64,000 nucleotides of DNA, from assembly GCF_900106675.1 (NCBI RefSeq), contig NZ_FNOB01000001.1, positions 62,001 through 126,000 on the forward strand. The letters run 5' to 3'. The stretch comes from Allgaiera indica (GTDB lineage Bacteria > Pseudomonadota > Alphaproteobacteria > Rhodobacterales > Rhodobacteraceae). This document shows positions 1,244 through 5,185 of this stretch, in pieces (position 1 is the first letter of the stretch; every line of letters starts with the position of its first letter). The translations under genes were made by a program, and so were the position numbers. The notes under the pieces were generated by a model, which was given only the letters and a program-made list of their open reading frames with translations, was not told where the DNA came from and did not search any database.

Positions 1244-2181
1244 TGGTGCATGACGTCCTTGCCGTCCTTGTCGGGCTGGTGCTGTTGGTGGTGGCGGGCG
1301 ATCTGCTGGTGCGCGGCGCGGTGAACCTGGCATTGCGGCTGGGGATCCCGTCGCTGATCGTCGGGCTGACGGTGGTGGCCTTCGGCACTTCGGCGCCCGA
1401 GCTTCTGGTGTCGGTCAAGGCGGTTCTGGATCACGCGCCCGGGATCGCGCTGGGCAATGTCGTCGGATCGAACATTGCCAATATCCTGCTGGTGCTGGGC
1501 ATTCCGGCTGTGATCTCGGTGATCCACGCGGGCGACGCACACGCCAGGCGCAGCTATCTGACGATGCTGGCCGCGACGCTTCTGTTCGTGCTGGTCGCGT
1601 TCCTGGGGCCGATCCGCTGGCCGCATGCCCTGGTGCTGCTGGCCGGGCTGGGCCTGATGCTGTGGGACAATTACCGCAAGGCCAAGGCCCACCGCGACGC
1701 CGAGGAAGAGGACCTTGAGGGCGCCGATCCGGCGTTGCCGATGTGGCGCATCGCAATCTATACCGTGCTGGGCCTGATCGGCCTGCCGCTGGCGGCGGAC
1801 CTGCTGGTTGACGGCGCGGTGGGCATCGCCCGGATCTATGACGTCTCGGAAACCGTGATCGGGCTGACGCTGGTGGCGGTGGGGACATCATTGCCGGAAC
1901 TGGCGACCTCGATCACCGCGGCGCTGCGGCGCGAGGCCGACGTTGCGATGGGCAATGTCATCGGGTCGAATGTGTTCAACCTGCTGGGGATCATCGGCAT
2001 CGCGGGTCTGCTTGGCCCGCTGCCGGTGCCCGCGTCGATGCTGGATTTCGACCTGTGGGCGATGCTGGTCGCGACATTGGCGCTGGCGCCGTTCGTGCTG
2101 GGCCGGCGCGATATCACCCGGTTCTGGGGATTCACCCTGATCGCGGGCTACGTCGCCTTTCTGGTCGCGCTGACGCATTGA
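1243..2181 (+). CDS. Calcium/sodium antiporter, CaCA family (YrbG-like)
   Basis: A 312-residue integral membrane protein of the Ca2+:cation antiporter family. The two inverted alpha-repeats that form the ion site are clear: GTSAPEL at 48-54 with GNVVGSNIAN at 73-82 in the first half, and GTSLPEL at 216-222 with GNVIGSNVFN near 237 in the second. A hydrophilic linker rich in Glu and Asp (about 147-165) separates the halves. About ten hydrophobic helices are visible. The start at 1243 overlaps the stop of the preceding 56-aa gene (TGATG), which suggests translational coupling. Its role is probably cation extrusion at the inner membrane; the ion preference cannot be read from sequence. Confidence 0.92.
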   Translation: MVHDVLAVLVGLVLLVVAGDLLVRGAVNLALRLGIPSLIVGLTVVAFGTSAPELLVSVKAVLDHAPGIALGNVVGSNIANILLVLGIPAVISVIHAGDAHARRSYLTMLAATLLFVLVAFLGPIRWPHALVLLAGLGLMLWDNYRKAKAHRDAEEEDLEGADPALPMWRIAIYTVLGLIGLPLAADLLVDGAVGIARIYDVSETVIGLTLVAVGTSLPELATSITAALRREADVAMGNVIGSNVFNLLGIIGIAGLLGPLPVPASMLDFDLWAMLVATLALAPFVLGRRDITRFWGFTLIAGYVAFLVALTH

Positions 2182-2192
2182 GAGGAGCCGGG

Positions 2193-2981
2193 ATGGAGCC
2201 GGGTCGGGCATTGGTAACGGGGGCGGCGAAACGCCTGGGCCGGGCGATGGCGCTTTACCTTGGCGCGCGCGGCTTCGATGTGGCGGTCCATTATGCGACC
2301 TCGGCCGAGGCCGCGGCCGACACGGTGGCCGAGTTGCGCGCCATGGGTCGCCGGGCCGAGGCGCTGCGGGCGGACCTGCTGGACGAAGACGCGACCGAGG
2401 CGCTGGTGGGCCGCGCGGCCGAGGCACTGGGTGGGCCGCTGAGCGTGTTGATCAACAACGCGTCGATCTTCGATCACGACAACATCCGAAGCATGACCCG
2501 CGATAGCTGGGACCGCGCGCTGGGGTCGAACCTGCGCGCACCGGCGCAGCTGACCCAGGCCTTCGCGGCGCAGGCTCCGGCGGCGGCGAAGGATGCGCGG
2601 GGCGAACCGGTGGCCCGGGCGGTGGTGGTGAACATGATCGACCAGCGCGTGCTGAAGCCGACCCCCGAATTCCTGTCCTACACGATCGCCAAGATGGGGC
2701 TTTGGGCCTTCACCCGCGTCGCGGCGCAGGGGTTGGCACCCGACATCCGCGTCAATGCGATCGGCCCGGGCCCGACGCTGCGGGGCGCGCGCCAGACCGA
2801 AGACCAGTTTGCCCGCCAGCGCGCCGCAACCGTACTTGGCCGCGGCGCGGCCACCGGGGACGTCATCGCCGCACTGGGCTATTTCCTCGATGCCGACGGC
2901 GTGACCGGACAGCTTCTGTGCCCTGATGGCGGCCAGCACCTGGCCTGGCAAACCCCAGACAACCTGGGCGTCGAACCCTGA
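2193..2981 (+). CDS. SDR oxidoreductase, pteridine reductase-like (FolM/PTR1 type)
   Basis: A 262-residue short-chain dehydrogenase. The N-terminal dinucleotide motif is TGAAKRLGRAM (9-19), with NNASIF (88-93) in place of the classical NNAG. Instead of the usual catalytic Ser, the sequence has NMIDQ with Asp150, followed by Tyr163 and Lys167. This Asp-Tyr-Lys spacing (13 and 4 residues) is that of pteridine reductase PTR1, so reduction of dihydro- or tetrahydropterins is the best guess. The start at 2193 has an AGGAG motif a few bases upstream. The gene follows the exchanger by 11 bases and may share its transcript. A generic SDR with another carbonyl substrate cannot be excluded. Confidence 0.82.
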   Translation: MEPGRALVTGAAKRLGRAMALYLGARGFDVAVHYATSAEAAADTVAELRAMGRRAEALRADLLDEDATEALVGRAAEALGGPLSVLINNASIFDHDNIRSMTRDSWDRALGSNLRAPAQLTQAFAAQAPAAAKDARGEPVARAVVVNMIDQRVLKPTPEFLSYTIAKMGLWAFTRVAAQGLAPDIRVNAIGPGPTLRGARQTEDQFARQRAATVLGRGAATGDVIAALGYFLDADGVTGQLLCPDGGQHLAWQTPDNLGVEP

Positions 2982-3286
2982 TCCTGCGGCAACATGAACC
3001 CGCTTCGCTCTTGACTTGTCCACGTCAGGGCGAACTGTCACAGAATCGTCAGGAATCTGTCAGGAATATCAGGCGCTTGCTTTCATCTTGAAATTTTATG
3101 CTGCAAATACAGTATCTTGAATTAATGCACAAAAATTAATCAAAGCAAAGAAATTTCCTAAAACGAAGGGAAAATCCGGTCTGACCCAAAGTTTCCACCA
3201 GACTTATCCACAGAAACCGTGGACAGCTTTTCACTTGTCATCGGCGCTCATAGAGTGCAGCTCCACCAGGAATCAATGCCATCGCC
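2982..3286. other. AT-rich intergenic, candidate replication origin / uvrC promoter region
   Basis: A 305-bp gap that is unusually AT-rich for this genome, above all at about 3083-3175. It holds a perfect DnaA-box consensus TTATCCACA at 3204-3212, a near match TTGTCCACG at 3016-3024, a degraded inverted match near 3218-3226, and three GANTC (CcrM-type) sites at 3043, 3053 and 3270. A DnaA-box cluster, an AT-rich tract and CcrM sites are the ingredients of alphaproteobacterial origins. The same DNA must also carry the uvrC promoter. Against an origin, genes on both sides run in the same direction and only one box is perfect. Confidence 0.4.
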
Positions 3287-5185
3287 ATGACTGAAACGCC
3301 CGCCACAAGAAACAACCCCGAAGCCACAACCGAGACGGAAGCGACCGCCACCGGGCATGCGGTGATCCAGTCCTACCTGCGCCTTCTAGACAGCTCTCCC
3401 GGTGTCTACCGGATGCTGAACGCGAAATCCGAGGTCCTTTATGTTGGCAAGGCGCGCAATCTGCGCGCCCGGGTGTCGAACTATGCCCGCCCCACCGGCC
3501 ATTCGCAGCGCATCGCGCGGATGATATCGGAAACCGCGTCGATGATGTTTCTCACCACGCGGACCGAGACCGAGGCGCTGCTGCTGGAACAGAACCTGAT
3601 CAAGCAGCTCAAGCCGCGCTACAATGTGCTGCTGCGCGACGACAAGAGCTTTCCCAATATCCTGATCAGCCGCACCCACGCGTTTCCGCAAATCAAGAAG
3701 CACCGGGGGCGGCGCTCGGAAAAGGGCAGCTATTTCGGCCCCTTCGCCTCGGCCGCGGCGGTGAACCGGACGTTGAACCAGTTGCAGCGGGTCTTCCTTT
3801 TGCGCAATTGCACCGACACGATGTTCGAAAGCCGCACGCGGCCATGCCTGCTGTATCAGATCAAACGCTGCTGCGCGCCCTGCGTCGGCATGGTCGGCAA
3901 AGAGGAATATGAGGGCCTGATCGCCGATGCCGAGGCCTTCCTGAAGGGCAAGACCACGACGATCCAGGCCAGCCTGGCGGCCGAGATGCAGGCGGCCTCG
4001 GACGCGATGGAATTCGAGCGCGCGGCCGCCTTGCGCGATCGGATCAAGGCGCTGACCCAGGTGCAATCGGCCCAGGGCATCAATCCGCGCACCGTGCCAG
4101 AGGCCGATGTGATCGCCGTCCATGCCGAGGGCGGCCAGGCCTGCGTGCAGGTGTTCTTCATCCGCGGCCATCAAAGCTGGGGCAACCATGATTTCTACCC
4201 CCGCACCGGCGCCGGCGCCGAAGAAGGAGAGATCCTCGAGGCGTTCCTGGCGCAGTTCTACGAACACAAGCCCCCGCCCCGGCTGATCCTGCTTTCGCAT
4301 GAGATCGAGGACCGCGACCTGACGCATGAGCTTTTGTCGGCCCGCGCCGGACGCAATGTCGAACTGGCCGTGCCGCAGCGCGGTGAAAAGGCAGAGCTGG
4401 TCGAGAACGCCGCCCGCAACGCGCGCGAAAGCCTGGCGCGGAAACTGGCGGAAAGCGCCAGCCAGACGCGGCTGCTGAAAGGGCTGGCCGAGGCTTTCGA
4501 TCTGCCCGCGCCGCCGAAGCGGATCGAGGTGTATGACAACTCGCACATTCAAGGCACCAATGCGGTCGGGGGCATGATCGTCGCGGGGCCCGAGGGCTTT
4601 GTCAAAAGCCAGTACCGCAAGTTCAAGATCAAGGGGACCGAGATCACCCCGGGCGACGATTTCGGCATGATGAAAGAGGTGCTGACCCGCCGTTTCACCC
4701 GCCTCTTGAAGGAAGACCCGGACCGTCAGGGCGGCTCCTGGCCCGACCTTCTGCTGATCGACGGCGGCGCGGGGCAGGTTTCGGCCGTGGCGGGGATCAT
4801 GCAGGAGATGGGGGTCGAGGATATCCCCATGGTCGGCGTCGCCAAGGGCATCGACCGCGACGCCGGCAAGGAGGAATTCCACCGCCCCGGGCAGCGCCCC
4901 TTCGCGCTGCGCCACAACGATCCGGTGCTTTATTTCATCCAGCGCCTGCGCGACGAGGCGCACAGCTTCGCGATCGGCACCCACCGCGCCGCCCGCGCCA
5001 AATCCATGAGCGCCAATCCCCTGGACGACGTGCCCGGCATCGGCGCCGCGCGCAAACGCGCACTGCTGGCGCATTTCGGCAGCGCGAAGGCGGTCAGCCG
5101 CGCCGGGTTGTCGGATCTGCAGGCGGTGGAAGGGATCTCGGACAAGGTCGCGCAGACGATCTATGATTTCTTCCACCACGGCTGA
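3287..5185 (+). CDS. uvrC: Excinuclease ABC subunit C
   Basis: UvrC makes both incisions around a lesion in UvrABC nucleotide-excision repair. The 632-residue length is normal for the family. Domains in order are a short variable N-terminus; a GIY-YIG nuclease domain from about residue 35 (SPGVYRM, then [14 protein letters not shown]); a UvrB-binding UVR motif around 225-260 ([14 protein letters not shown]); an RNase-H-like C-terminal nuclease domain ([29 protein letters not shown]); and a terminal helix-hairpin-helix pair ([30 protein letters not shown]). The ATG at 3287 is the first plausible start. It opens a block uvrC-pgsA-moaD-moaE, all on this strand. Confidence 0.97.

What the first reader, a model, noticed from the sequence alone, without database searches (positions are those of the whole stretch)
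2982..3286. Candidate chromosomal origin: DnaA boxes, AT-rich tract and three GANTC sites
The gap before uvrC holds a perfect TTATCCACA, a near-perfect TTGTCCACG, a weaker inverted match, a tract of roughly 90 AT-rich bases and three GANTC sites within 305 bp. In alphaproteobacteria, DnaA boxes, an unwinding tract and CcrM methylation sites mark oriC. It may instead be a DnaA/CcrM-regulated promoter or a DnaA titration site.
Basis: partly seen in the sequence, partly recalled or inferred. Interest (0 to 1): 0.55.

Follow-up and report, generated by a model that had tools for sequence, protein, structure and literature searches.

The report
DARS-like DnaA control site before uvrC
The DNA in front of the repair gene uvrC is very probably not where the chromosome starts to replicate; it is a widely conserved binding site for the replication initiator DnaA, built like the sites that recharge DnaA in E. 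coli, and may show how a large class of bacteria resets its replication clock.

Summary
The motifs are real, but this is not oriC: the likely origin is on another contig, beside parS, parAB and hemJ, and in a complete relative GC skew turns at parS, not here. The site is strongly conserved: 79 of 79 relatives with enough upstream DNA have a DnaA box before uvrC. Across much of Alphaproteobacteria the element keeps order and spacing: an IHF-type site, a palindrome GCCTA-(A/T)-TAGGC that fits the Fis consensus, then three DnaA boxes with the spacing and orientation of the E. coli DARS core (box I facing II and III; offsets 14 and 12). A profile built only from alphaproteobacterial copies scores E. 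coli DARS1, datA and DARS2 (in chosen fragments) above 400 shuffle sets. Of 64 class genomes with a strong hit, 56 have it just before uvrC and 8 only elsewhere, so it is not simply a uvrC promoter. Best reading: a DnaA-reactivating-type (DARS-like) locus that also lies in the uvrC promoter region. Architecture shown; the ADP-to-ATP exchange is inferred. Against: in this window boxes I and III and the IHF position are weak, 30 of 106 class genomes show no match, and the palindrome's protein is unknown.

The parts
3204..3212 (+). DnaA box II, perfect TTATCCACA
   Evidence: pairwise identity 0.97 in 79 rows
3218..3226 (-). DnaA box I, inverted, offset 14 from box II (CTGTCCACG, 6 of 9)
   Evidence: pairwise identity 0.73
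3192..3200 (+). DnaA box III position, offset 12 from box II; weak in the window (TTTCCACCA, 5 of 9), better in relatives
3127..3141 (.). 15-mer GCACAAAAATTAATC that fits GnnYAnnnnnTRnnC (Fis consensus); GCCTA-(A/T)-TAGGC palindrome in relatives
   Evidence: exact in 59 of 79 family rows and 13 of 18 class loci at -77 to -79
3107..3119 (+). IHF-type site position; three mismatches in the window, near-consensus in most relatives
   Evidence: <=2 mismatches at -97 in 68 of 79 family rows; 17 of 18 class loci at -96 to -100
3016..3024 (+). distal DnaA-type box TTGTCCACG (family block TTGTGCAC)
3037..3056 (+). degenerate pair of GTnACAAAA repeats, period 11
3054..3203 (.). AT-rich tract
   Evidence: 0.65-0.69 A+T in 100-base windows
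3234..3260 (+). family promoter-side blocks CTTG (3234-3237) and GTGCAG (3255-3260; TTGCAG in relatives); CTTG displaced and TTGCAG and GANTC absent in G040, whose uvrC has moved away
3270..3274 (+). conserved GANTC
   Evidence: 77 of 79 rows within 60-72 bp of box II
3014..3273 (+). whole family element (model R1 match); class model R2 matches 3105-3226
3287..5185 (+). uvrC
   Evidence: UvrC RNase H domain, GIY-YIG
2055..2981 (+). ORF of the SDR-family gene upstream (NCBIfam PRK09134.1); true start not settled

Best explanation
The gap before uvrC carries a DnaA-regulatory locus of the DARS type (DnaA-reactivating sequence), found once in this genome. Shown: three DnaA boxes, read on the minus strand as I-II-III with box I facing II and III, at the offsets of the E. 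coli DARS core; a palindrome that fits the Fis consensus and an IHF-type site at fixed distances; conservation over much of Alphaproteobacteria; mostly before uvrC but also kept at other places. Inferred: ADP-DnaA assembles head-to-head on boxes I and II, helped by box III and by DNA bending at the IHF site and the palindrome, loses ADP and leaves as apo-DnaA to be recharged with ATP, so the locus helps set how fast competence to initiate returns. DnaA bound there probably also tunes uvrC transcription, as E. coli DARS1 lies in the uvrB promoter. In this genome boxes I and III and the IHF position are weak, so activity may be lower than in relatives.
For: Geometry, tested on 18 loci of other families chosen only for a <=1-mismatch box upstream of uvrC: mean match to TTATCCACA 6.89 of 9 at -12 (same strand) and 6.50 at +14 (opposite strand), next best 4.0; 300 shuffles never exceed 3.78. 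E. coli DARS1 and DARS2 have the same offsets, 14 and 12. Model R2, built from 36 alphaproteobacterial copies, ranks DARS1 (26.9 bits), datA (19.8) and DARS2 (19.3) first in 6.7 kb of chosen E. coli DNA; an HMM of the same alignment gives 24.9, 19.7 and 16.6 bits against at most 12.2 in 400 shuffle sets. IHF-type site <=2 mismatches in 17 of 18 and Fis consensus exact in 13 of 18 at fixed distance. Class: R2 in 76 of 106 genomes; at E<=1e-6, 56 of 64 genomes have it before uvrC and 8 only elsewhere. Family: one match each in 76 of 80 genomes, 75 of them 35-321 bp before the aligned part of uvrC; in G040 the element stays behind the same SDR gene (65% identity) while uvrC lies elsewhere without a box.
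Against: In the window box III is 5 of 9, box I 6 of 9, and the IHF position has 3 mismatches. 30 of 106 class genomes and 17 of 26 alphaproteobacteria of the phylum sample have no match. The II-III pair (3-bp gap) is the general DnaA double box in E. coli (PMC11317965, passages), so only box I is DARS-specific. Fis is reported only from gamma relatives of E. coli (PMC4245941, passage), so the palindrome's protein is unknown; the block order (core, palindrome, IHF) differs from DARS2 (core, IHF, Fis). Overall identity of the element (0.56) is no higher than that of uvrC third codon positions (0.55). No biochemical test.
Confidence: 0.6

Rival explanations
1. Only a uvrC promoter: DnaA, IHF and a Fis-type protein bind here to couple uvrC transcription to replication, with no effect on DnaA's nucleotide state.
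For: 75 of 76 family matches and 56 of 64 class genomes have it right before uvrC; CTTG, TTGCAG and GANTC blocks look promoter-linked and are displaced or gone where uvrC has moved away. In E. coli DnaA regulates uvrB (PMC6015884, abstract in listing).
Against: 8 of 64 class genomes and family genome G040 keep the element away from uvrC; of six of the 8 whose uvrC upstream was read, five have no <=1-mismatch box. The fixed inverted box I and its spacing are DARS features.
Confidence: 0.2
2. A datA-type site: DnaA with IHF stimulates ATP hydrolysis or titrates DnaA away from oriC.
For: A distal box, an IHF-type site and the main boxes in that order; R2 scores datA second in the E. coli fragments.
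Against: The datA alignment ends before box I, which here is kept at 97-99% in four of its five core positions, GTGGA; the distal box was not tested outside the family.
Confidence: 0.13
3. The chromosomal origin.
For: DnaA boxes, AT-rich tract and an IHF-type position in 305 bp, deeply conserved.
Against: No skew minimum at the site, no polarity flip; parS, parAB, hemJ and another DnaA-box/AT-rich region on contig C41; in CP051232.1 skew turns at parS (1.80 Mb), not here (1.10 Mb); R2 gives 65.5 bits here and at most 13.8 in the parS regions of 11 relatives, and no hit at E<=10 at the C41 region.
Confidence: 0.02

Closest known systems
DARS1 of E. coli (bioD-uvrB gap, uvrB promoter region)
   Same: Boxes I, II, III in the same orientation and at the same offsets, 14 and 12; promoter region of a nucleotide-excision-repair gene; best hit of the alphaproteobacterial model in the E. 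coli fragments
   Different: uvrC not uvrB; IHF-type site and palindrome added; boxes I and III weak in the window
DARS2 of E. coli (mutH promoter region)
   Same: Same core spacing; core plus IHF and Fis-type sites; intergenic, away from oriC
   Different: Order of the accessory sites; a single palindrome in a class reported to lack Fis; no tested requirement for either protein
datA of E. coli
   Same: Consensus box with a weak same-strand box 12 bp before it, an IHF site, distal boxes
   Different: No box I at +14 in datA
parS-side oriC of Rhodobacteraceae (C41 here)
   Same: AT-rich DNA with DnaA boxes
   Different: Other place; no R2 match above 13.8 bits in 11 relatives and none at E<=10 in C41

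Membership tests
DARS | Three DnaA boxes, I opposite to II and III, with the spacing shared by DARS1 and DARS2 | tested here: met
   for the class and family; in the window itself boxes I and III match only 6 and 5 of 9
DARS | Intergenic, away from oriC | tested here: met
   169-1041 kb from parS on 11 main contigs of 3.2-4.7 Mb, two of them measured on an assumed circle
DARS2 | IHF-binding site at fixed distance from the core | tested here: inconclusive
   Consensus-level in most relatives; 3 mismatches in the window; binding not tested
DARS2 | Fis-binding site needed for activity | tested here: inconclusive
   Sequence fits the Fis consensus, but Fis is reported only from gamma relatives (PMC4245941); the protein is unknown
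DARS | Stimulates ADP release from ADP-DnaA | not testable with these tools
   Needs biochemistry
datA | DnaA boxes flanking one IHF site; stimulates hydrolysis of DnaA-bound ATP | tested here: inconclusive
   Distal box and main boxes flank the IHF position in the family; activity not testable
oriC | At the GC-skew minimum, near parS/parAB | tested here: not met
uvrC promoter only | Element always goes with uvrC | tested here: not met
   8 of 64 class genomes and G040 have it only elsewhere

The most novel reading that the evidence does not exclude
The element is the ancestral form of DARS: a Fis-type palindrome about 78 bp from a I-II-III DnaA core, kept as one main copy (with an IHF site, mostly before uvrC) in Alphaproteobacteria and multiplied in other Proteobacteria, where the alpha-built model finds up to 9 matches per genome in one family. 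E. coli DARS1 and DARS2 would be derived forms, and DNA-driven DnaA reactivation pan-proteobacterial, with a Fis-type factor still to be found in Alphaproteobacteria.
Probability: 0.4. Interest if true: 0.87.

Novelty: new variant of a known kind. Interest (0 to 1): 0.72.

Why it matters
How alphaproteobacteria regenerate ATP-DnaA is, to my knowledge, open: a term search of the Caulobacter DnaA-activity paper PMC3193534 found neither 'DARS' nor 'nucleotide exchange', and the passages seen place DARS conservation in beta and gamma relatives of E. coli (PMC5742627; PMC4245941), while one review says 'many proteobacterial species' without naming them in the passage (PMC10380432). A well-bounded locus with conserved parts makes the question directly testable, points to an unnamed palindrome-binding protein, and could mislead origin finders that look for perfect DnaA boxes in AT-rich gaps (inference).

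Tried and rejected
oriC: rejected. RNA gene: Rfam gave one chance-level match, E 1.4, 18.8 bits against a gathering score of 60. Sigma-70, sigma-54 and RpoH readings of CTTG...TTGCAG were weighed by eye; none fitted, left open. KOPS-like octamers are too few to place the origin alone. Class-level conservation of GANTC failed (3 of 18). Bulk identity of the element is not above uvrC third codon positions (0.562 against 0.551 in the same 79 rows; composition shuffles 0.259 and 0.359); the signal is in blocks (box II 0.97, box I 0.73, palindrome 0.64, spacer 0.46). A search of the whole E. coli genome was not possible, so the E. coli comparison rests on three fragments (6.7 kb) chosen because they hold DARS1, DARS2 and datA; my first guess for datA was the wrong place. 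Rows dropped: L023 and L050 from the family register; L209 and L054 from the R2 alignment; of 28 class loci, 8 without a <=1-mismatch box and 2 that could not be oriented were left out of the offset scan. Only hits at E<=1e-6 (67 rows) went into the class join.

Full report
The window is positions 62001-126000 of contig C48 (356,135 bases) in a 77-contig, 4.28-Mb draft genome; its nearest relatives by UvrC are Rhodobacteraceae and Paracoccaceae. TTATCCACA occurs 7 times in the genome, its reversed control 19 times, and once on C48. One box in 64 kb is not remarkable; three GANTC in 305 bp is about twelve times the window's density.

NOT THE ORIGIN. On C48 cumulative GC skew has no minimum at the site; with small reversals it falls on to about 165-170 kb. 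GGGNAGGG/CCCTNCCC polarity does not flip there. The genome's only two exact parS-type palindromes lie on contig C41 at 122-124 kb, 3.4 kb from TTATCCACC, TTATGCACA and TTATCCACA in AT-rich DNA. The genes that follow are hemJ, mnmE, mnmG, rsmG, parA and parB by NCBIfam (hemJ a little under its cut-off, parA by family resemblance; the gene between hemJ and mnmE was not searched). C41's cumulative skew is lowest at about 85-105 kb and rises after that. dnaA is at C41:8.7 kb. In the complete chromosome CP051232.1, sampled in 22 pieces of about 20 kb between 0.1 and 2.72 Mb (the rest not sampled), skew is negative up to 1.78 Mb except two slightly positive pieces (0.85 and 1.70 Mb), and positive in all seven pieces from 1.79 Mb on; parS is at 1.797 Mb, the uvrC element at 1.10 Mb. 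On 11 main contigs of 3.2-4.7 Mb the element lies 169-1041 kb from parS, two measured on an assumed circle. The Rhodobacteraceae chromosome paper (PMC6699656, passages) also chose origins by skew and parAB.

CONSERVATION IN THE FAMILY. Of 80 uvrC loci, the 79 with enough upstream DNA all have a <=1-mismatch box in about 400 bp upstream, perfect in 68. In 78 relatives plus the window (79 rows) about 260 bp align with few gaps in distinct blocks: TTGTGCAC; GTcACAaAa..GTtACaAAA; TTTCAG; an A-rich run; AAATCAAnnnnTTA, an IHF consensus; GCCTA-(A/T)-TAGGC; an A-rich block; TTnTCCnCAGAGTTATCCACAG; GTGGA; CTTG; TTGCAGC; and GANTC, within 60-72 bp of the box in 77 of 79. Model R1 has exactly one match in each of 76 of 80 genomes, one genome per genus; UvrC is found in 79 of 80. 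75 of the 76 matches lie 35-321 bp before the aligned part of uvrC. The exception, G040 (a 120-contig draft), has the element behind the same SDR gene as here (65% identity), with GTGGA and an exact IHF consensus, but with CTTG displaced and TTGCAG and GANTC absent, while its uvrC is on another contig with no <=1-mismatch box in the 500 bp read.

THE GEOMETRY. E. coli DARS1, read from MG1655, has boxes at relative positions 0 (+), 14 (-) and 26 (-); DARS2 the same. PMC5742627 (passages) defines the core by this shared spacing and by box I facing II and III; [quoted passage not shown] Read on the minus strand the uvrC element has I at +14, II at 0 and III at -12. Test: of 28 uvrC loci from other families of the class, 18 have a <=1-mismatch box upstream of uvrC, 8 do not and 2 could not be oriented. 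In the 18, chosen without regard to neighbours, the best secondary positions are -12 same strand (6.89 of 9) and +14 opposite strand (6.50); the next is 4.0, and 300 shuffles do not exceed 3.78 at any offset. The same 18 carry an IHF-type site at -96 to -100 (17 with <=2 mismatches, 12 with <=1) and, in 13, an exact Fis consensus GnnYAnnnnnTRnnC (as given in PMC8682772, passage) at -77 to -79.

CROSS-CHECK ON E. COLI. A sequence-only model of 126 positions from 36 alphaproteobacterial copies (R2) ranks DARS1 first (26.9 bits), datA second (19.8) and the DARS2 core third (19.3) in 6.7 kb of E. coli DNA chosen to hold them; the DARS1 and DARS2 alignments run through III, II and I, the datA one ends before I. 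An HMM of the same alignment gives 24.9, 19.7 and 16.6 bits against at most 12.2 in 400 shuffle sets. In contigs C48 and C41 and the parS regions of 11 relatives (0.79 Mb) R2 gives 65.5 bits at this site and three other hits at E<=10, all in relatives' parS regions, the best 13.8 bits.

INDEPENDENCE FROM uvrC. Of 106 genomes of the class, 76 have an R2 match at E<=0.01 and 102 have UvrC at E<=1e-50. At E<=1e-6 there are 67 hits in 64 genomes: 56 have one 41-612 bp before the aligned part of uvrC on its strand; 8 have it only elsewhere. In G172 and G150 the element lies near the SDR gene (in G150 with folB between). The uvrC upstream region was read in six of the eight: no <=1-mismatch box in G185, G172, G150, G110 and G114; one (TTATCCAGA) in G128. 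G096, with uvrC in pieces, was not read; in G179 no UvrC was found. Several of these are fragmented drafts. The link to uvrC is common, not required.

WHAT SPEAKS AGAINST. In the window box III is 5 of 9, box I 6 of 9 and the IHF position has three mismatches. 30 of 106 class genomes and 17 of 26 alphaproteobacteria of the phylum sample, several from the same few families, have no match. The II-III pair is the usual DnaA double box in E. coli, found at 15 of 16 bound regions (PMC11317965, passages). The palindrome's protein is unknown, since Fis is reported only from gamma relatives (PMC4245941, passages). Block order differs from DARS2. Overall identity of the element equals that of uvrC third codon positions, so the case rests on blocks and spacings.

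PRIOR WORK. Ten paper searches showed no DARS in Alphaproteobacteria in the listings and passages I saw; most subscription papers, and the original DARS paper, are not held. PMC6090056 (passage) mentions DARS-like sequences in Vibrio cholerae; PMC10380432 (passage) says such sequences occur in many proteobacterial species. I therefore call it a new variant of a known kind.

VERDICT. A DARS-like DnaA-regulatory locus before uvrC; architecture shown, reactivation inferred (0.6). Not the chromosomal origin.

Noticed in passing
L270-L291 (non-alphaproteobacterial loci of the phylum sample): The alpha-built model R2 finds 1-9 matches per genome in one family (f115) and single or few matches in others; in 20 of 22 loci read the Fis-consensus palindrome sits 77-78 bp before box II (selected by the model, so not independent). 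Neighbours include priA (L278) and pyrD (L279).
   Followed up: partly
window 1-64000: GANTC is about five-fold rarer than dinucleotide shuffles predict (52 against 272).
   Followed up: no
L004 (G000:C37:108881): Another perfect TTATCCACA of this genome lies just before a gene that reads like nrdR (translation read by eye).
   Followed up: no
L171 (G024:C1:1607438-1609263): uvrC is split in two matches with three TGA inside the first, while the element before it is intact; it may be an assembly error or a broken gene.
   Followed up: no
L257 (G141:C1:1428659-1428782): A second strong R2 match (E 3.1e-15) 480 kb from the uvrC copy in a 6.5-Mb genome.
   Followed up: no
window 3234-3260: CTTG and TTGCAG blocks, 21 bp apart, near-invariant in the family, fit none of the promoter types I considered by eye.
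   Followed up: no
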